The notes below the pieces were generated by a model. That model was not told where the DNA came from and made no database searches. It saw only the letters and a list, made by a program, of their open reading frames with translations. The translations under genes and the position numbers were made by a program. A stretch of 64,000 nucleotides of DNA from Branchiostoma floridae (Eukaryota > Chordata > Leptocardii > Amphioxiformes > Branchiostomatidae), in the NCBI RefSeq assembly GCF_000003815.2, contig NC_049997.1:13142261-13206260 (forward strand), written 5' to 3'. This document shows positions 9,593 to 36,900 of this stretch, one piece after another (positions within the stretch are counted from its first letter, which is position 1; every line of letters starts with the position of its first letter).

Positions 9593-17734
<8,142 letters not shown>

Positions 17735-21166: not shown

Positions 21167-24100
21167 CTAGAAGAGCATAAAACACGAAATGTCACTTTAA
21201 TACAGCTGTAAACATGAATATTAGTGGATGAAGGAGAATTCTTATTACACAACCAGTAGGTACTGACATTGCTTACGTTTCGATGTCTCTCAGACACCTT
21301 CGTCAGAGCTTCTATTAATAAACTGGAGTTCTAACTGGAGAAATTACTTCATGAATATTACTTCAAGTTTAGACTATGCGCCGCAGACTACGAAGTCTTG
21401 TAAAGACCTTTATCTGGCAACATTACTTCAGGTTGATCACGAAGCATGACGCATTTTTGCTAGTGTAATAGTTGGGTTCAAGCGCCACTAAATGACCAGT
21501 CCAGACCCTGTAGCCTAGCACTTTTTGGTTGGGCCCGTCAGCTAGCCGGCGGTGCGCCCTGGTTCGAATCCCAGGGGCCAGGGAATCGAACCAAGGCCTT
21601 GGTGGTGAGAGAGCTAAGCACCTACCACTAGACCCAGAGTCGAGTAGAACATACTACCCTAGCTACAGAGGTTAGGCTTTTATTTTTACCTTTTGTATAG
21701 TTTTTAACGGGATTTCTATTTTGTACTGTTTTGTTAATGTCTCGCTGCCGATACAAACTCCTAAAAGAACGTTAAAAAATGACAGAGCCTAACCTCTTCT
21801 TGGAGAGTAAGTAGACCTCTAGTCACCTATATCAGGACCGTGGGATTCGAATCTGCGTCAAAGCTACATGTACATACAGAAGAACGTACCTTGGCCTCCC
21901 TGATGCCCTTGTCCATCATCTGATACAGACTGTCCCCTCCTCCCATCTGCTTGATGTCCATCCAGCATCCATAGCCTCGCTCCTGCAGGCGATCGTGCAG
22001 CAGCAGTACCTGGTCCTGGTGGTCCCACTGGTATGACAGGAAAACCGCGTTCTCCTGATAAAACAAAAAGTTACAGGAAAAAAAATACCTGTCAGATTTG
22101 AAACACGTTTTGTACTATGTATAGGCCCAGTAGCAGTCATGTACAAACAAAATACTTCATCAGTATATTTTTCACGCATATTTTCTTCCTCCTTTTCGTG
22201 TTATTCTTCTTTACATCTCTTTCAAAAAGCTGCTATTACGCGTCATTACTAATAAACATGTACAACTGTATGCAGCATTTCAGTTACATACTACATGCTA
22301 GGCGTGCTTTTGGCGACACCTCATGGGAGAGGTTTGTTTATATGGTTACGATCACTCTGAATATGTTCTACCGATTGCATGAATGTAACCCCCATAAAAA
22401 GGATTTTTTTACACGTTGATAACTCAAAAAGGTGTATATGATGGATCTTTTGATATTTGATATGTGGGAAGGTGTTATCAAAACAAAGGAAAGTGTGAAT
22501 TTGGGGGCCCCCTTGCGGATTTGAAAGGTACTGCTGTTGAACTTCCGGTTTTGATATGTTCTGGATAATACGCCATGGCAGCTAGCTCTTGTGCTCTATA
22601 TAGACAAGAAGTGATATAGACTTGGGTACCCTAACAGCTTACTTTGAGGGAGTAATTCTACAAGGGGCATTCTTTCGAAGACTTTGAAAGAGGATGAGTA
22701 CATTTTTTAACACCTTTCTTGTTAACCATTTATGTGATGGCCCCACAGTCGTATCTAACTTCGGACGCTCTTGTTTTCTTATTTTCAATCAAATAATTTC
22801 GGCTTGCATGTTTGTGCATTACTTGGGCAATGAGTTTTTAACCTAAGCACAGGGAATAACAACAAAATAACACCAAACCTTCACGGTTATCTCTTCCGAT
22901 CGGACGATTGGTTGAACCCGCGCGGTCGGTGTGGGTCGTTTGCGAACTGACGAACCATCGTTCTCATCCTTTAGAGAAGCGCCAGGCTTTAAAAAATGAT
23001 AAAACAGATATCAAAACAATCAGCTGCTTTGACTATAGGAAAATTGGAGAGAAAAGGATGTCATAACAACTTTGACCTAACTCTAAAAAGCATATGCCAC
23101 GCTGACAAGACTTGTAAATTTTTGTGTCTTACCTTTTCTGGTTTTAAGGCAGATGCCAGCTCGTATAGACCCAGCTCCTCCAAGGTTCCCCCAAGACTGT
23201 CCATCGTGACCTCTGACCCTTTCTTCTCCTTCCACGTCATCAGCATCTGGTACATCTGGTCGTCCGGATGCTCCTCCTGAAAATCATAAAAAGGCAATCA
23301 GTAATTTCACCTTCTAAGGTGGTAAGCTTCACCTGGCAGGACACACAAAAACTGCAGTGCAGAAACACAATGTCACAGATAGCACCCAAAACAACACTTC
23401 ACACATTTGGTAACGTAGTAAAAGGAACACAAAGTTTCTCCGTGTAATTTTAATAGATTATCAATGATGGAAAGCTATCCTTTTTCATAATTGTTCATCT
23501 TGTAATATTTGCATACCATAATGTTGCAAAATTTGTAATACCCCGGTACCTGTATTTGATCGATGACGTCATCGCTTAGTCCCAAAAGACGGGCCGTTGG
23601 TTTGATCTGTAGTCGGTCCACGGTCAAAGCCAAGCGGCAGAAGGCTCTCTTTAGATCCTCTTCTAAACACACAAAAATTCATTTCATATTTCATATTCCT
23701 TCATTGTTTTCAACATTACTTTTCTCGCATAATCTAATAATCAATGGACGCTAATGTTTCTCTAGGATACTTTAGCGAATAACTATAGAGAGAAACAAAA
23801 AAGCATTACGTACCTTTCTCAGCTTCATCTTTGAGGAAGGCCAAGATGTCATCACTTCCTTTCTCACAGACGTCTGCGGGAGGGTATTTTAGGGGGTTAC
23901 CAGCAACCACTAGCCGTTTCAGACGGCTTAGATGGGAGAGGGAACTGGGGATCTTACTGATACGGTTATTCCTTATGTCAACGACCATGAGCTTAGGCAG
24001 ACTGCAGAGAACCTCTGGGAAGGTTTTGAACTTGTTTTCGTAGAGGTAGACGTCTCGAAGCCGTTTCAGCTTGTCCATTGTTGGAGGAAGGGCGCTGAGT

Positions 24101-25008
24101 TTGTTGTTGGACAACGCCAGATATCGCAGCTGCTCGAGGTCTCCAATCTCCTCTGGAACGCTTCTGAAACGAAACTCGCCTTCTTGTCCTGCAAACAGTT
24201 GCTCAAGAGACCTCAGCTTCAGTACCGGTCTCGGAAACTCCTCAAATTGACAGGAGATGATGGTGAGAGATTTTAGCCTGATGAGGTTTTTGATCTCATC
24301 AGGCAGAAATCTGATCGGGTTGGGGCCCACCACCAACACTTCGAGGTTCGACAAGGAGCAGACCCCTAGCGGAAGCTCTCGGAACTGATTGCCGTCAATG
24401 TACAGTTCCGTCAAATTCTTCAGCCTTTCTACTCCTTCTGGCAAGGTTGACAGTTTGTTGTTACTGACAACGACGGTCTCAAGATGTTGGAGAGAACAAA
24501 CACCAGATGAAAGTTCGGTTAACTTGTTACCACCAACGTAGAGTTTGGTCAGGTTTTGTAGTTGCTCAAATCCAGCGGGCAGTTCTGAAAGTTCATTGTT
24601 GCTCGCTACCAACATCTTGAGATTTCGTAGAGAGCAAATGCTTGCTGGAAGCGTCACGAGTTGGTTGTCGTTGATGTATAGCCATCCAAGCTTTTTCAGC
24701 TCGCCTACCTCGCTTGGTAGCTCGGTAAGAGTGTTAGTTTGGAGGTACAGTTCTTCTAAGTTCTGCAGAGAAGCTATTTTCTGAGGCAAACTTGTAAGCT
24801 TGTTGTCGTCTGCATCCAAACGGTAGAGTTTCTGTAGACGGCCGATGGATTCGTGGATGGTGGTCAGCTTGTTTTTGGACAGGTCTAGATATTCCAAGTC
24901 AGTGATGTCGAACACTTGTTCCGGAATGGACGTCAGACGTTTGTTAGTGAAGTCAAGGTAAAGTCGACCGTTGAAATTTTTGGGTCGTAGGTTCAGACTT
25001 GCCGCCAT
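20888..25008 (-). CDS. LRR-death-TIR protein (complete gene)
   Basis: Six exons: 23814-25008, 23550-23662, 23133-23276, 22879-22986, 21890-22054, 20888-21166; total 2004 bp, 667 residues, all phases consistent. Domains: 16 leucine-rich repeats (about 1-398), death domain (about 399-484), linker (485-520), TIR (about 521-655), short acidic tail. No signal peptide or membrane segment, so it is probably a cytosolic sensor/adaptor. By family knowledge, death and TIR domains make homotypic contacts (as in MyD88) and some TIRs cleave NAD. The order LRR-death-TIR is not that of Toll receptors or MyD88. Head-to-tail with the LRR-death-kinase paralogue 3.2 kb downstream, with homologous exon structure in the shared half. 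Confidence 0.9.
21167..21889. other. TIR-gene intron with SINE-like tRNA heads
   Basis: The only recognisable content is the convergent pair of tRNA-like segments described separately at 21534-21634. Confidence 0.55.
21534..21634. repeat. Two convergent tRNA-like (SINE) heads
   Basis: Plus strand: a B-box GGTTCGAATCC at 21561-21571 preceded by an A-box-like GTCAGCTAGCCGG. Minus strand: TAGTGGTAGG (A box) near 21621-21630 and GGTTCGATTCC (B box) at 21582-21592, with CTCTCACC between, resembling tRNA-Glu. The B boxes are 10 bp apart and face each other. No complete cloverleaf with acceptor stem is evident, so these are called SINE-derived, not tRNA genes. Confidence 0.65.
21890..22054 (-). CDS. 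LRR-TIR gene exon 5: first half of TIR
   Basis: TATCAG|GAG acceptor, AAG|GTACG donor, 55 codons, phase 0-0. Encodes ENAVFLSYQWDHQDQV (box-1-like beta A), then GYGCWMDIKQMGGGDSLYQM, matching the W-M-D-I...GGD...M-x-x-G-I pattern of TIR_2-type domains. Confidence 0.92.
22055..22878. other. TIR-gene intron with old interspersed repeat
   Basis: The stretch at about 22418-22560 (TAACTCAAAAAGG...GGCCCCCTTGCGG...GGTACTGC) resembles the start of the repeat at 58500-58640. No coding signal. Confidence 0.45.
22879..22986 (-). CDS. LRR-TIR gene exon 4: linker
   Basis: 36 codons in phase 0-0 between TTTAAAG|CCT and AAG|GTTTGG. Charged, Ser/Pro/Arg-containing linker (PGASLKDENDGSS ... VQPIVRSEEITVK) joining the death and TIR domains. 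No domain recognised. The exon is inferred from splice sites and open phase. Confidence 0.72.
23133..23276 (-). CDS. LRR-TIR gene exon 3: second half of death domain
   Basis: TTTCAG|GAG acceptor, AAG|GTAAGA donor, 48 codons. Encodes EEHPDDQMYQMLMTWKEKKG then TLEELGLYELASALKPEK, the classical C-terminal half of a death domain including the conserved Trp. Confidence 0.92.
23550..23662 (-). CDS. LRR-TIR gene exon 2: first half of death domain
   Basis: Acceptor GTTTAG|AA, donor CAG|GTACCG, phase 1 in, phase 0 out. Encodes EEDLKRAFCRLAL then RLLGLSDDVIDQIQ, the LGLS-x-x-x-I death-domain signature. Confidence 0.92.
23814..25008 (-). CDS. LRR-TIR gene exon 1: whole LRR domain
   Basis: Start ATG at 25006-25008 in CCAAGATGGCG context. 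The frame is open 37 codons further upstream, but the paralogue begins at the same MAA-LNLRPK, so this start is chosen. Contains 16 LRRs of 23 residues (for example LEYLDLSKNKLTTI) and the cap PLKYPPADVCEKGSDDILAF. Leaves in phase 1 at GAGAAAG|GTACGT, the same junction as in the kinase paralogue. Exactly two repeats longer than the paralogue. Confidence 0.95.
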
Positions 25009-28000
25009 CTTGGATATCCTGTGAATGAAGGTGAATAGTATACACAATGTTACTGTTAGGTCTTGTAAGTGACTTATGCATACCTCGTTTGAACTGGCTC
25101 TTATGGTTGCATGAAACACACCTATAAAGTGCTCATCGTTTCATAATAGGGATTGACAAAAATATTTGAATGTAGCTATAGATCAGAGATTTCTGCCCCC
25201 AGTTGTAGAGACTCCCTACAAATAAACTGCGCCGGAATGTAGGACTGAAGCCACCACGTAGCAAAACAAACCGACATAAGATGTCCTTCATACCACGAAC
25301 TCTGGCCCACAAAGCTCTCTGTTTGTCTAACTGCTGATGTTGAAAGATTTTAAGATCTTATATTCAACAAAGCTTTATATATTGAATTATTGAAATGCTA
25401 TCACGAGTGTTGTAAGAATCAATTCAATTCAGACCCTACGAGGACTGCAAATGCAAAGTAAATAAAGTTTGATTTGAGACCAAATACAGCACATGTAACC
25501 AATACATTGCGCTATAAACGAAATATATGCCAATCTATAAAAAGATATTATATATCTCAAAATTTCGCGGACAAAGCAAAATGTCTAAGAAGAAGAAATA
25601 TCAGCTCTTCTTAAGATAACAATACATGGCCTGTAACCTTTTGAATAATTTCTTTGCCTGCTTAACGGCATGCAGTCATCGTATAGTGTAATGTGTTTTC
25701 ATTCTATTGGTTCCTTTTTATCTATCATTTATTATCCATACTTATTTCTTTTGTTTAATTTATATACATTGTAATATTAAAAGTTAGTAAAGGGAGGCCT
25801 TCTCATAAGCAGAAGCTTTTGACCTCCCTTGCACTGTTATGTTCTTTTATGATTCATTTTCATGTATTCATTGTTTCCTTCTAAGTGCGAAACAAATACT
25901 AGTAATCAAATGTACTTATAACAAGGACTATGGTAAAGAACTGTGCATTGTGCACATGGGTGAACGAAGTGATCGATAATTAGTAGCGCACGATGATTGG
26001 TGCCCCTACGTTACTTAACTAAGTTGACAGGTGTCAACGGTTGCATTGACATTTGTGACGCGGTATTACATGGCTAATCTTTACGATGAAAGACCAATGA
26101 AATACAATTACTTCTTAACGATCGCAATGCTTTTGGAACGTGCATGTAATACATCTATACGGCTTCGCAACGTCACAGAAGGAGGAAGTAACAGAGCGCC
26201 CCCTATCGGATTTCCAAAGACAACGCCCCAACAGTTCCACCGCAATCGACCAAAAATTTAATACATACCTTGAGGTCGTTGTGGCCGTTGTAGTTCATTT
26301 AACGAACGTGTAGTAGATACAATGTCTTAAGTTAGCTCCTTTCAACTTAATCATGCATTAAGTTCACGTTTTGCTGATAAATGTTCTGAACGTAATGCGA
26401 CCACCTGTTGGATTGCACTTGCCACGAACAAACAAGAAACGGTATATAGTAGGCATAGCTGTACTAGGTTTCGGCTCGGAATTACTGTTACTGTCCTTTT
26501 CATGAAATAAGCCGACAGAAATGTGAAGAAAAAAAGACATAATCTAGACATACGCTCCAAACTACCAACAAATGCTATGAATAGGCACCGTTAGCATACG
26601 GTGACTGAGTTATCCTTCAGGCAATTTGAGACAAAAGGGCCAAGTAAAATGCAAATGGCGGACCCTGAATGTACGTCAGAAATTGGACAGGAAAAGGCGT
26701 GGTCACATGCTGATCATTGACAAACATGATCAATCGTGTTACGGTTTTGGTGTTGTTTTCAAACACTCTAACAGAAACGACCGTCTACGTCAATCTACAA
26801 CAACATTTCCCGCCACAAGACGTCAAAATATTGTAGGACGACTGTCCCAAGAAGGTCAACTTGTTGTCGTGAACCCATCGTAGGAAGAATGCAGTCAGAA
26901 TGGGGTACATTCTAGTATTGGTAAAACACATTTTCGAACCTGTATGTATTGTGTGAATATAACAACTTACCTGGACTGCGAGTGCCACCTCTTGTTGCCT
27001 TTCTTGCTAAAATCTGTGTCAGGCGGACGAAAACCTACACTTAAACAGTCTGAAACACAGCACCTCTTTACGTTTTGGTGTGGGGGCGTGTTTAGACCCT
27101 TTGTTTACCTTTTAGCTCACCAGGTTAGGACGACAGGTAACCGAGACAGGTGACCCTGGTAACGCCCTTTGTGAAGATCGGTGCGTGCGAGAGTGAATAG
27201 GACTTCATCAATGCATTGCGAGGCTGGCTCTTGTGTTAAAAGTCGTGTACTACTACTGTAGTGTATGTGTGTGTGTGTGTGCATGTCTATGTGTGTGTGC
27301 GCGTGCATATGTCTATGCATGTTTATATGTGTGATTGCGTTCTATATTATGATCAAAACTGACAAGGACATGTTCCTGTTAAAACTTTGTCCGTTTTTGA
27401 AGCGTACTCCAAAGTATATGATTGTTTATTTGTATTACGCTTCCTAGCGCCCTCGTTCAGATTTACATACTCTGTCATACATGCCCGAAATATACCATCT
27501 ACAAAGCCAAATAGTCAAACCTCCACAGGTGATTATCACTACATAAGTACCCTTTGGCAATTGCAGTCACTTTTCCGTGTATCCTAGAGTATTTCCCTAC
27601 TGTCTAATGCATTTTAAAAGAGTCCTGTCTATAATGACAAATTTGACAGTATCTGCTTGGAGCTCCGGAAATCTGTAAAAAAATCTACATACTAAACGAA
27701 GAAGGATGAAGCAAAACACTGCAACAATCTTGTCAATATTGAAAAGCATCCGCTAATCTTTATTCTACAGGACTTACGCAATAATGCAGCATTTTCAAAA
27801 CACAGGCACATGAGCATATGACACCTGTTGGACACAGGTGAACAAAAGTTTCTTAAAGATCCTTGGTGGAATGTGAACCATTATAAGTGTGTACAATGAT
27901 TTCAAGTACATTAATTGCCATTGCTTTGTGTACTTAGTAAGTGAAAATAGTTGGTCAGAGTGGGTAAGATTTCTACACTGCACTTATACAGTACAAAGAC

Positions 28001-30825: not shown

Positions 30826-30959
30826 TTATTCACAGGCAAGCTTTCCGTCGAAACTGCTGAGAGCGACAGAGAAGGCTTGGACGGCACAGAGAGGGTAGTT
30901 GTAGTCGCAGGTGAAGACGTCTTCGGCCACGCGACCAAACTGCATCACAATGTACTCCG
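30826..30959 (-). CDS. TUB: Tubby last exon: FGRVAEDVF to stop
   Basis: AACAG|CG acceptor. Encodes [20 protein letters not shown] and [11 protein letters not shown] at 30826-30828. This is the invariant C-terminal helix and end of the tubby barrel. Confidence 0.97.
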
Positions 30960-33900
30960 CTGTTGGTGAGAGATTCACACAAACATTACATTAAAGACAT
31001 TATTCAGTATTCAGATTAAGTCAGGGGTCTAGCCAGCGTCCGTTTTTCCGTCAATTGACGGAACTTTCCTGCGTCTGACGGAAACATTTTAAAACCAATC
31101 CGTCAACCTTGACGGACAAAAATCCTTGGTGGAAGCTACAGGCGGCTTGGGGACGCCGTCCACGGCCGTAAAAGCCACACACTGTTTGTTTTGCTATTGT
31201 TATGATTGTTGACAATGTGTGTCGGCGCCCTTTCGCATACCATAATCTCATTAAAACCCGTTTTTCAAGGTCTCAGTTCAGTCCTTCTAATTAATTTTCG
31301 CGGTTTTTGCGATGATTGTAATTGGCTGACGGAAAAAAATTTCGAGCTGGCTAAAGCCCTGGATTAAGTACTATAATAATATATTTGTTCAAACCAGATT
31401 GTTGATATGAAGGTCATCAACAAATTTTATAATAAATGTACAAAAAATTTGACTGTGTGAGAGCTCTCATATAAATGTCTTTTGATCTATAATCAAATTA
31501 AACAAAGGGGGAGTCTACTTACGATCATTGTCGTGGACAATCTGGAAATTCTTGACAGACGCCTGTGTGACACGGCCATGGAAGTTTAGCACATACGACT
31601 GGGTGTCTGTGGGCAGGAGAGAAATAACAATCAGTAAAAAGTGTGACTCTCACTGTCTATTTTACATTTACCCTAGAACACTGTACTCATGAAAATTTGT
31701 CAAAACTTTTACATGTGTAAAGGAGACTCTAAATGTTCTGGCCAGCAATATTTAGTACATACATGTACATAGATCTTTAAAATTCGACACTTTAGATGTA
31801 TGAGATGTGGAAAAGGCCATACTGGACCGTACCATCATTCCACACGGGGGTCTTGTTGTGTAGTTCCAGAATGCTGTCCATGTTTCTGTGCTGCCATCTA
31901 CTCAGCAGACTTTCACTGTCCTGTAGGTGTTAAAAAAAGTTAATATAGCAGGAAAACAAAAAATTAAAGCAAAATGTTATTTCTACTGAATTTCATCGAC
32001 ATAAGCTTGAGCAAGTTGAAAGGAATGGCATTCATCCTTTAAGTTTGGATGGTAACATGAAACCATCGGCCCCGTGGTATGAGAAAGCTTTAGGTGTTAG
32101 TTTCAATGCAGTAGGCTTACGTTTCTTGGTTTGATGGCGACTCTTTCGTGGTCCAGTGTCATTCCCGGAATAATGACCGTCATTTTCCTGGGTCCCTTGA
32201 AACCCAACACGTTAGTTTCCTGTTAAAAGAAGAAAACATACAAGATAAATTTCATGCACATACCACATTACTACAGTATAATTCTGTTTGAAAATATTAA
32301 CTTTCCATGGAAAAGAGAACTCTATCAAAACTTGTGAACAAAATAGTAGTAAGGTTTTATTTCTCTATAGTTTTTAAGAAAAATTTAACTCTAAGTACAA
32401 AAATGAATACCTAAATAAAACAGTCATTTGCTTTTAAACAGAACCTCAGAGCTTAAAAGATGGACGGATGGTAAGACGAACAAAACGAGTGATAAACAGG
32501 AGATGGATTGAAGGAGAGATATACAGTAGGAAAGATGGACAGAAGGAGAGACTTACGTAACAGATAGCTGCAATTTCTTGCCTGACGTTGGACCCGTCTG
32601 TCATGACCCCTGATTTCAGCGGGTTGGCCCCGTTATCGTAAACCGTAAACTTGGTGCCTAACATGTTCGACCTGGGACAGAAACCAGGGAGGCTCAGTGC
32701 ATGCTGGGACTTTTCTAACTCTAAACCCTTGTGACTAAGAACACTGCTGGAGGAGGTCTTGGTGCTGGAAAGGGGGAGGGGGGCGGGCAAACTGTTGCTT
32801 GCCAGGATAAGATTATATAGAAGAGTGGAGAAAAGAGGAGGATAGCCTTGTAGCGTCACCAACTTTCATACCACTTCCTCAACAACCAATAGGGACAAAG
32901 CTAGCTGTGATTGACAAATCAGTTAGACAACACCTTGATCCAATGTTTTTTGCCATAATAACATTTATTTAGTTTTGAGCATTGGAATTTACGAAAATTG
33001 TTCATATAAATTTTGCTTTTTCTCCCTCACAGCTTGCTAATGTCTATATTTGCAATTGAGGACTGTGATATTCAGTGCCTGAGAAAAGAAAGGGAAGAAC
33101 AGGCATGAAACTATGAATACAAGGACAGCCTTTAGAGGGACCTGCAGCCACTAATTCCACCAGTCCTGCAAATACAATTATTTTGTGACTTTTTCCAAAT
33201 GGACAAAAAACTGCCTGTGATTGACGTCAGATTTTACAAAACTTGACTTTTGTTTTATCAAGTTACAAGGTTTGAATTCTAACTGACATTTCATTTTAGC
33301 TTTATAATTCGTACAATTTGTATCTTAGACAATCAGTTGAAACTTGACATCTGATTGGTTAACAGAGCTGTCAATCACAGCCAGAAGCTGCCCTGATTGG
33401 TTGTTAGTCACATGCTTGACTCTTACATAGCAAACAGCAGCTAGTTCTTCTCGCATGTTGGAGGCATCCGGCATCGCCATGTTGGAATCCGGTGACACGC
33501 CACGGCTAAATATGGTGAACTTAGTGCCAAGCATATTGGATCTAGAACAAAGCAACGTTTCAATGTTAAATTTCAAAAAGGAACAACTTGCAGGACATCT
33601 CACTGCACTGGAAGGAAATAATCAACATCTGAGTAAGAATAATCATCATTTTTTTTACTGACAAAAGCAATCATTGCTAAACAACAACATAACAACAAAA
33701 TCATTTACACACAAAAGAATTATGTAAATCTGTTGTTTTTCTTATGAGTGAAATGTGGTACAGTAGAATTTAACCATTTTTAAAGTATAAGTAGTTAGTT
33801 ATCATTAAAAAACAACAATTACTGTGATCTATGAAATCATACTATTAGTCAAGTAACATTGTGACAGCCCTTAAAATGCAGAACAGTGCCTTTTTCTTCT

Positions 33901-36900
33901 AATTTTTGATACCAATTTCTTTTGGTGGAAATCACACTAACAGCTGAATGACTTCTACCAACACAGATGAACTTTCAAGCTATTTGGCATGCCGTTGATT
34001 TGATTGATTCGGCTGTGAGAAATACAGCCAGGGCTACCCAACTAGCCCAAAGGCTATTATCAAGGGCTAGCCCTGGTAAGGCCTGTATCACATTTCCAAA
34101 GCATGACCGGTCCGGGTCTGTTTGTGGAAAGGAAAAATAAAAATGTATACGGCACAAATAATGCCCACGACTATTCTCTTTACGTCTTGTGTAGCTTGGT
34201 GTCTTTTATATCTTTCTTTTCGTTACCAAAAATTAACACAAGACATATCTTCAGTCAAAAAGTACACACAGAACAATTCAGGGCTCTAGCCAGCTCGAAA
34301 TTTTTTTCCGTCAGCCAATTCCAACTGTCGCAAAAAAACACGAAAACACTATTCCAGGAGTTAGAGAGACTGAACTGAGATCTTGAAAAACGGGTTTTTA
34401 ATGAGATTATCGTATGCAAAAGAGCGCAGACACACATTATCAACAATCATAACAACAGCAAAACAAACAGTGTGTGGCTTTTACGGCCGTGGACGGCGTC
34501 CCCAAGCCGCCTGTAGCATCCACGAAGGATTTTTGACGGATTGGTTTTAAAAATTTTCCGTCAGATGCAGCAAATTTCCGTCAATTGACGGAAAAACGGA
34601 CGCTGGCTAGAGCCCTGGAACAATTTAAAACTTTTTGTTTCAGTTACTGGAGTGAGTCTATGGACAACAAGCATACCTAAGTTTCCCCACGTAACTCTCT
34701 CCTCCCCGTGACAAATCCGTGGCATCGACAGACACCAGGTAATTTGATGTTGTGCTCTTCTTCCTTTTTCGTCCAGCGAGCAGGAAAACCTAAAAATGGT
34801 ACATTTATAAACAATTAGAGTCATTGCCTGAAACTGATTTGATTTCTCTGTGGCATCTGACTATGCTAATGTTTGCAGCTGCTTAAACTATATTCTAAAA
34901 CAGATATGGTTCTGACCATGGTGCTAAATGCATGGGGAATTGTTGTTAACAATGACAAATCATGCCAACTACCGGCTTACTTGCTTGCTCAGTATAAAGA
35001 ATCAACAGGCTACTTTTGTAAGAGCTACATGAGCAAAGCACTGATCAACTTCTGTATTTCTAGGCCAATACAGTCATTCTTCCATGCAAAAAAAAAATCT
35101 GTAAAATTAAAACATAAGAGTATCAAAATAAGTTACTGTATAGTAGACTTAAATAACAATTTGTATCCTGTACCAGTCAATATTGTATAGCTTAAGAATC
35201 TATGTGTATATTGTACTAGATTTATGTAAACTGGTAGCTTTTTTACATTGCTTTGCATTGCAAATAAGCAACTTGACTTTATCTTAATATGTCAAGATCT
35301 CAAAGGAAATAACTTGCTTTCCCTTGAAAGTGCTGAAACTGAAGTGATTTTTAAACACACTTTCAAAAACATTGCTTTTGTGACACATTGAGACAATTTG
35401 GCATCAACTCCATTCAGTATTTCCAATCATGCCTCAAGATATCAAATGGAATGACTTGCTTTCCCCAAAAGGTGTTGAAACTTAGATTTAAGTGGTTTTA
35501 AAACAAACTTTCAAAAACATCTCTATTGTGCCACATTTGTAAAACTTGGCACAAACTCCATCAGTATTTCCCATGATGCCTCACCTTTTTCCCATCATCC
35601 CTCTCCATGTGTAGGTAGTACGTGGGGAAGACCCCGCGGTCCATGCCCTTCTTGTCGCGGGTGATGCGGCACTTGACGGTGTGGCCCTGCGGAGCGGGCT
35701 TCAGGACAAACTCCTCCAGGTTGTCAATGTCCACCTGTGGCGGCCCGGCGGCGTTGGCGTTAGCGTTGGCGTTGGGCTTACTGGCGCCGTTGCTGGTTTC
35801 TTGCGGCTAAAAATAGGGAAAACAGATTGTTATTGTTATTGGTTGGGCCGACCACTCTTTCTTCGCAGCCAGGGGCTGAATTGCTAGGAACTACAATTGG
35901 TGGGGCTAAATTGCAATAGTCTGAAGTGGCAGTCTGTATACAGCACCTAGGCTATAGTGACCTCAATACCACAGTAATTGCCCCAGCTGTGGCCAAAGGA
36001 CTGTATGTTTTGAACCACTCACACCAGGTAGTACAGTGGGTTCTTTTACGTGCTTGAGGTATGGCTCGCCTCAAATACAGGATGTCCATTTAACGTCCTA
36101 TCCACAGGACGGCCCTAACCGAAGGGGGAAGGACCCCTACTCTTTTTGATAAATCTAGTGGGATCTTTAACGTGCTCAAGGTGGAGCTCTCCTCAAACAC
36201 AGGACCTCCATTTAACGTCCTGTTGAAACAATGATAGGCATCAAAAGGAAATGTATTCCACTGACCGTCCCTGGCTTCTTGGAGCCTGAGCTTGAGCTTG
36301 AAGGGCGGGAGGAACTGGTCGCGGCCACGGGGACGGTGGTGGTCGGTGTGGCAACCGGCTGGCTCTCCGACTCTTGCTCCTCGTCACTAAAGTCATCGTA
36401 ACTGACACTTGATGAAATTCCCATGGCTGCCAGTTTACGCTCTGGAACAACATTATATGTAGGGATAAGACATTAGAGCTGAATACAAAATATCAAAGTC
36501 GAATACAGAGTAGACATGGAAATAACAAAAGTATTAAAAAATAAGGTTATATTTTAGGCAGTGCTTCTGCATGTGTGTGCACACGTGCGTGTGTATGTGT
36601 GTGCACACGTGCGTGTGTATGCGTGTGCGTGTGTGCATGTGTGTGTGCATGTGTGTGTGGGTGTGTGCATGTGCATGCGTGTGTGCATGTGCATGTGTGT
36701 GTATGTATGTATACATGCATGTGTGTGCATGTCTGTTTGTTACCAAGTCAAGAATGGCTGAATATATTAATTTGGTGTTATATTCGGTATGCTGGTAGTA
36801 ATGACAAAAAATGAAAATGATTAGATGTTGGGTCCCCTGGGGGTATTCCACGTACAGCAGTTTGAACTGCTAGTTTGACATCTCTTGTTCAGTAAAAGCT

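What the first reader, a model, noticed from the sequence alone, without database searches (positions are those of the whole stretch)
32557..33541. Mutually exclusive duplicated exons in the tubby barrel
Seen: two consecutive minus-strand exons (33427-33541 and 32557-32671) encode homologous versions of the same 38-codon tubby segment ([15 protein letters not shown] versus [15 protein letters not shown]). Both are exactly 115 bp, both enter completing an Arg codon, both end at a codon boundary with a strong donor. 115 is not a multiple of 3, and reading B after A gives TAA within 13 codons; skipping both also breaks the frame. So exactly one must be used. Inference: the gene makes two tubby isoforms differing in a surface loop next to the phosphoinositide-binding region. 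I do not know of this switch being described.
Basis: partly seen in the sequence, partly recalled or inferred. Interest (0 to 1): 0.88.

Follow-up and report, generated by a model that had tools for sequence, protein, structure and literature searches.

The report
Lancelet tubby gene's two-version exon
A lancelet (amphioxus) tubby gene carries two neighbouring, related versions of one exon, arranged so that a working protein can contain only one of them; the choice would change part of the pocket with which tubby proteins grip membrane lipids.

Summary
Confirmed: adjacent minus-strand exons A (33541-33427) and B (32671-32557), 115 nt each, same phase, ordinary splice sites, encode homologous versions of one 38-residue tubby segment (21 of 38 identical; silent sites saturated, dN 0.39). 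Exactly one keeps the frame; both or neither breaks it. The window holds no third copy. The species is a lancelet: exon A is 98-100% identical (40 residues) in predicted proteins of three Branchiostoma entries, the only hits of its search. B looks ancestral: it departs from 1 of 23 columns invariant in 67 fetched non-lancelet segments, A from 7. On mouse tubby, the exon is part of the PI(4,5)P2 pocket: it completes Arg332 and holds Tyr343, Asn348 and Arg363. Both versions keep the arginines; A has Phe343 and Ser348 (Ala in one relative). Most likely a genuine mutually exclusive pair, policed by frameshift and nonsense-mediated decay, tuning lipid or cargo binding. Not shown: RNA reads, use of B anywhere, or altered binding. 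The three lancelet database entries all carry A; no lancelet protein with B was listed. A known kind of switch, in a gene where I found none described.

The parts
33427..33541 (-). Exon A, alternative (lancelet-specific) version of the 38-residue tubby segment, 115 nt
32557..32671 (-). Exon B, alternative (ancestral-type) version of the same segment, 115 nt
34677..34789 (-). Shared upstream exon; ends inside the codon for the residue equivalent to Arg332; holds Lys330, Asn310 and the basic stretch 301-305
32121..32219 (-). Shared downstream exon ([12 protein letters not shown]...)
32672..33426 (-). Intron between A and B, 755 nt, with an imperfect hairpin (arms about 33405-33340 and 32950-32881) of unproven meaning
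35585..35806 (-). Tubby-domain exon further upstream
36266..36441 (-). N-terminal exon (earlier N-terminal exons not mapped)
   Evidence: the script used 36440 as first base
31833..31920 (-). Tubby-domain exon
31523..31606 (-). Tubby-domain exon
30826..30959 (-). Last coding exon with the stop codon (30828-30826)

Best explanation
This is a true pair of tandem-duplicated, mutually exclusive coding exons in the lancelet gene of the TUB/TULP1-3 type. SHOWN from sequence: the two exons have the same length, phase and splice geometry, homologous products, and a frame that stays open only with exactly one of them. INFERRED: the spliceosome joins the upstream exon (ending 34677) to either A or B and then to 32219; transcripts with both or neither meet a stop upstream of several exon junctions and are removed by nonsense-mediated decay, so exclusion is at least policed by the frame. 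Which exon wins is probably set by RNA-binding proteins acting on two exons with donors of similar strength. INFERRED: both products fold as tubby domains and keep the basic lipid-gripping residues, while A changes neighbouring pocket and loop positions, so the isoforms probably differ in phosphoinositide affinity or selectivity, or in the cargo they take to cilia, rather than one being dead.
For: Equal length, phase and open frames, stop on double inclusion or skipping. 21 of 38 residues identical although silent sites are saturated (pS 1.01, dN 0.39). Donors within the gene's own range. Exon A 98-100% identical over 40 residues in P0001, P0002 and P0003; the three tubby domains differ at 2 of 258 positions. 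B keeps 22 of 23 columns that never vary in 67 non-lancelet segments. Pfam Tub scores are nearly equal, 319 bits with A and 323.5 with B. The exon holds pocket residues. A human survey counts 377 of 629 exclusive-exon clusters whose exon lengths would break the frame on joint inclusion (PMC5740500, section 7).
Against: No RNA evidence at all. No lancelet protein with exon B was listed: none in the 120 rows shown of 454, and none of the 189 fetched proteins holds B's own words; clustering at 90% could hide it, or B may not be annotated. B's DNA is known to me from this one genome only. In the human survey joint-inclusion reads were seen for only 83 of the 377 frame-breaking clusters, so decay alone is rarely the whole mechanism, and I found no convincing regulator. 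Human TULP3 has Cys at the Asn348 column, and Tyr343Phe did not substantially change binding in mouse tubby, so A's pocket changes may have little effect. No usable structure model of A was obtained.
Confidence: 0.8

Rival explanations
1. Only exon A is used today; B is the ancestral exon, displaced and silent or nearly so, and there is no functional switch.
For: The three lancelet database representatives all carry A and no lancelet B protein was listed. B's acceptor has an AG-free stretch of only 19 nt and no match to the simple branch-point pattern within 60 nt.
Against: B is open, with ordinary splice sites and 22 of 23 invariant tubby columns, after silent sites between A and B have saturated. 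A long-abandoned exon would not be expected to keep this. Clustering at 90% identity would merge a B isoform with an A isoform.
Confidence: 0.13
2. The two exons are alternative but without functional difference: redundant copies kept because each can rescue the frame.
For: Both keep Lys330, Arg332 and Arg363, and Pfam scores are nearly equal. Tyr343Phe is a neutral control in mouse tubby.
Against: A departs from 7 of 23 otherwise invariant columns, yet is almost unchanged among the three lancelet entries, which looks like selection for a distinct version.
Confidence: 0.1
3. Assembly or annotation artefact: the second exon was put here wrongly.
For: Such things occur: the Calidris pugnax model P0004 carries two identical copies of this segment, one out of place, which I take for an assembly error.
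Against: A and B share only 61 of 114 bases and no detectable similarity in their flanks. In the Tub family search of this genome the only other locus is TULP4-like and lacks such an exon. Exon A sits in predicted proteins of three Branchiostoma entries.
Confidence: 0.02

Closest known systems
Tandem-duplicated mutually exclusive exons with frame-breaking length (PKM exons 9/10 and FGFR2 IIIb/IIIc are recalled examples; survey PMC5740500)
   Same: Two homologous neighbours of equal phase and length, length not divisible by three, embedded in a folded domain, joint inclusion gives a stop.
   Different: The gene: I found no such pair reported in a tubby gene; 'tubby' and 'TULP' do not occur in the main texts of two human surveys. 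RNA evidence is missing here.
Vertebrate TUB / TULP1 / TULP3 tubby domains (PDB 1i7e, 1s31, 8fh3)
   Same: Same domain; exon B is of their type.
   Different: They have one version of the segment in each predicted protein seen, save the Calidris model; lancelet exon A departs at 7 of 23 columns invariant in the 67 segments compared.
Competing RNA structures (docking site and selectors, Dscam type; PMC6071210, abstract start seen)
   Same: A long intronic hairpin begins 21 nt after the donor of A.
   Different: No selector for each exon and no conservation evidence; 26 of 418 window segments fold at least as well for their G+C.

Membership tests
Mutually exclusive tandem-duplicated exons | Adjacent homologous exons of equal phase and similar length | tested here: met
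   115 nt each, same phase, 21 of 38 residues identical
Mutually exclusive tandem-duplicated exons | Both have working-type splice sites | tested here: met
   AG acceptors and gtaag donors, scores in the gene's range
Mutually exclusive tandem-duplicated exons | Joint inclusion or joint skipping gives no functional product | tested here: met
   Frame breaks in both cases
Mutually exclusive tandem-duplicated exons | Junction reads to each exon that bridge the other | not testable with these tools
   No RNA data held; A is seen only in predicted proteins
Mutually exclusive tandem-duplicated exons | Both exons conserved in related species | tested here: inconclusive
   A: yes, three Branchiostoma entries. 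B: none of the 120 listed of 454 hits is a lancelet; 90% clustering can hide it
Exclusion by steric clash or U2/U12 mismatch | Donor to branch point under about 50 nt, or mixed splice-site types | tested here: not met
   Intron of 755 nt; both exons have GT-AG sites with gtaag donors; the 50-bp limit is from PMC5740500
Exclusion by competing RNA structures | Docking site with one selector for each exon, conserved pairing | tested here: inconclusive
   One hairpin, z -3.6 against shuffles, but 26 of 418 window segments as strong; no second species for covariation
Tubby domain proteins | Pfam Tub over its cut-off with either exon | tested here: met
   319 bits with A, 323.5 with B, cut-off 27
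Tubby domain proteins | Lipid-site residues Asn310, Lys330, Arg332, Asn348, Arg363 | tested here: inconclusive
   B isoform 5 of 5; A isoform 4 of 5, Asn348 being Ser, Ala in P0003. Binding itself not testable here

The most novel reading that the evidence does not exclude
Lancelets, with one TUB/TULP1-3-type gene found in this genome, use a splicing switch to swap part of the tubby PI(4,5)P2 pocket itself. B is the standard pocket; A is a lancelet-specific pocket (Phe343, Ser344, Arg345, Ser or Ala348, the Lys of B lost) held nearly fixed across species, giving a second lipid or cargo specificity in particular cells, a job that vertebrates may instead have divided among TUB-family paralogues.
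Probability: 0.35. Interest if true: 0.68.

Novelty: new member of a known kind. Interest (0 to 1): 0.5.

Why it matters
Tubby proteins read membrane phosphoinositides and take receptors into cilia, and the tubby domain is used as a PI(4,5)P2 sensor. A natural, conserved second version of the pocket exon offers a ready-made comparison of which pocket and loop residues set lipid or cargo choice, and a possible case where splicing does what gene duplication did in vertebrates.

Tried and rejected
Exon A as a TULP3-like version: rejected. A shares an Arg at position 345 and a non-Asn at 348 with human TULP3, but over 39 positions A matches TULP3 at 18 and B at 21; against the mouse TUB segment (40 positions, best single gap) A matches at 20 and B at 25.

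Steric or U2/U12 exclusion: not met. Distant branch point for B: not supported, since the AG-free stretch before B is only 19 nt.

RNA hairpin in the A-B intron as a docking structure: z -3.6, 0 of 100 shuffles fold as well, but 26 of 418 same-size window segments reach the same G+C-corrected energy, so it is not special here. Its copy number in the genome could not be tested (genome search busy); no copy elsewhere in the window or L005 by blastn.

Splicing-factor motifs, 11 patterns in 8 introns: one TGCATG at 32258 (p 0.03, uncorrected; place) and more TGTT-type matches upstream of A (28 against 16.0 expected, 0 of 200 resamplings as many). The pyrimidine-rich stretch after B (11 TCT in 120 nt, 0-5 in the other flanks) overlaps a small tandem repeat. 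Too weak to name a regulator.

Structure prediction of A-carrying proteins: P0001 (mean pLDDT 37.7) and P0003 (45.9), both of low confidence and not used; no fold search was run.

A third exon copy: none in the window.

Full report
WHAT IS THERE. The window lies in a 513-Mb genome (G000, contig C19). The 342-residue A isoform assembled from its minus-strand exons is identical to the C-terminal 342 residues of a predicted protein of a Branchiostoma floridae x B. japonicum hybrid (P0001), so this is a lancelet. The A-only and B-only frames run to the end of the domain; A+B stops at the 13th codon after A; skipping both frameshifts. The stop of A+B lies in exon B with four junctions downstream, that of the skipped form in the next exon with three, so both should be targets of nonsense-mediated decay (inference).

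BEYOND CHANCE. A and B share 21 of 38 residues without a gap (score 122; maximum of 2000 shuffles 44). In the window each finds only the other above chance level. They share 61 of 114 bases, and blastn of the exons with 300-nt flanks gives only short chance-level matches. Silent sites are saturated (pS 1.01) while dN is 0.39: the duplication is old, and protein sequence was held.

RELATIVES. A search with the A segment alone had 3 candidates, all Branchiostoma: P0001 and P0002 100% and P0003 98% identical over 40 residues. Their tubby domains differ at 2 of 258 positions, one of them inside A (Ser/Ala). A search with the B segment gave 454 proteins, 120 listed; no listed row is a lancelet, and the named rows are vertebrates as far as I recognise the names. 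All three lancelet representatives carry A, and none of the 189 fetched proteins holds B's own words. The database is clustered at 90%, so a B isoform would fall into the same clusters; its absence does not show loss, but use of B is not shown either.

WHICH IS ANCESTRAL. Of 189 fetched proteins 186 gave the segment (3 dropped without a match); 3 are lancelet, and the other 183 give 67 distinct segments with 23 columns that never vary. B departs at one, a Leu that A shares; A departs at seven: that Leu, and Val to Ile, Tyr to Phe, Asp to Ser, Asn to Ser, Lys to Ser, Gln to Glu. The sample was gathered by likeness to B or to the whole B isoform, which favours B-like segments; human TULP3, outside it, has Cys at the Asn348 column.

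WHERE IT SITS. On the mouse tubby chain (1i7e) a single numbering offset, 240, fits all six residues named in papers: Asn310, Lys330, Arg332, Tyr343, Asn348, Arg363. Arg332His and the Lys330/Arg332 double alanine mutant have reduced PI(4,5)P2 affinity; Tyr343Phe, in the pocket, does not substantially change it (PMC10445746, passages). Asn310, Asn348 and Arg363 are named as lipid-site residues in PMC11013449 (passages), citing a structure paper that I did not see. So the exon junction falls inside the Arg332 codon, and the alternative exon carries Tyr343, Asn348 and Arg363. A and B both restore Arg332 and keep Arg363; A has Phe343, Ser344, Arg345, Ser348 (Ala in P0003) and Glu364, and lacks B's lysine at 351. 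The second lipid site (301-305, PMC10445746) lies in the shared upstream exon and is intact. I infer that A still binds membranes, with altered contacts or partners; I do not infer loss of binding.

HOW THE CHOICE IS ENFORCED. Steric clash and U2/U12 mismatch are excluded by the 755-nt intron and the site types. What is certain is the frame rule, which applies to 377 of 629 human clusters; [quoted passage not shown] The A-B intron holds an imperfect hairpin, but 26 of 418 window segments fold equally well for their G+C. Motif counts name no convincing regulator.

THE GENE. A Pfam Tub search of the whole genome gave 4 matches at two loci, this gene and one on C9. The C9 gene matches weakly, has a shorter stretch in place of the A/B segment and looks like TULP4 (the name is my reading). 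The search scores exons apart, so a missed relative is possible.

LITERATURE. Nine answered searches of an open-access library gave no description of exclusive exons in a tubby gene. I saw listings and starts of abstracts; passages of six papers, one section of one of them, and a term search without hits in a seventh. In two human surveys 'tubby' and 'TULP' do not occur in the main text (PMC5740500, PMC9741552).

VERDICT. It is a new member of a known kind of splicing switch; expression of both forms and the functional step are untested.

Noticed in passing
34275-34617 and 31022-31365: Two inverted copies (about 86% identical) of a roughly 340-bp repeat lie in the introns before exon A and before the last exon; paired in the transcript they would loop out exon A, B and three further exons, an arrangement that can favour circular RNAs.
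   Followed up: partly
32881-33405: Imperfect hairpin inside the A-B intron, starting 21 nt after the donor of A; perhaps an inverted-repeat transposon remnant, perhaps regulatory.
   Followed up: partly
P0003, position of mouse Asn348 within exon A: The one difference inside exon A among the three lancelet entries is at the Asn348 column (Ser or Ala), as if that pocket position were freed in the A form.
   Followed up: no
P0004 (Calidris pugnax predicted tubby): This bird model carries two identical copies of the same segment, one far N-terminal; probably an assembly error, but it suggests that birds have the same exon borders.
   Followed up: no
L005 (G000:C9:12192000-12201900): A second, diverged tubby-family gene, TULP4-like by my reading.
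   Followed up: partly
23806-25140 (-): A 444-codon open frame without introns that encodes a leucine-rich-repeat protein.
   Followed up: no
12250-13131 and 13869-14562: Runs of N, which explain the low G+C reading of that stretch.
   Followed up: no
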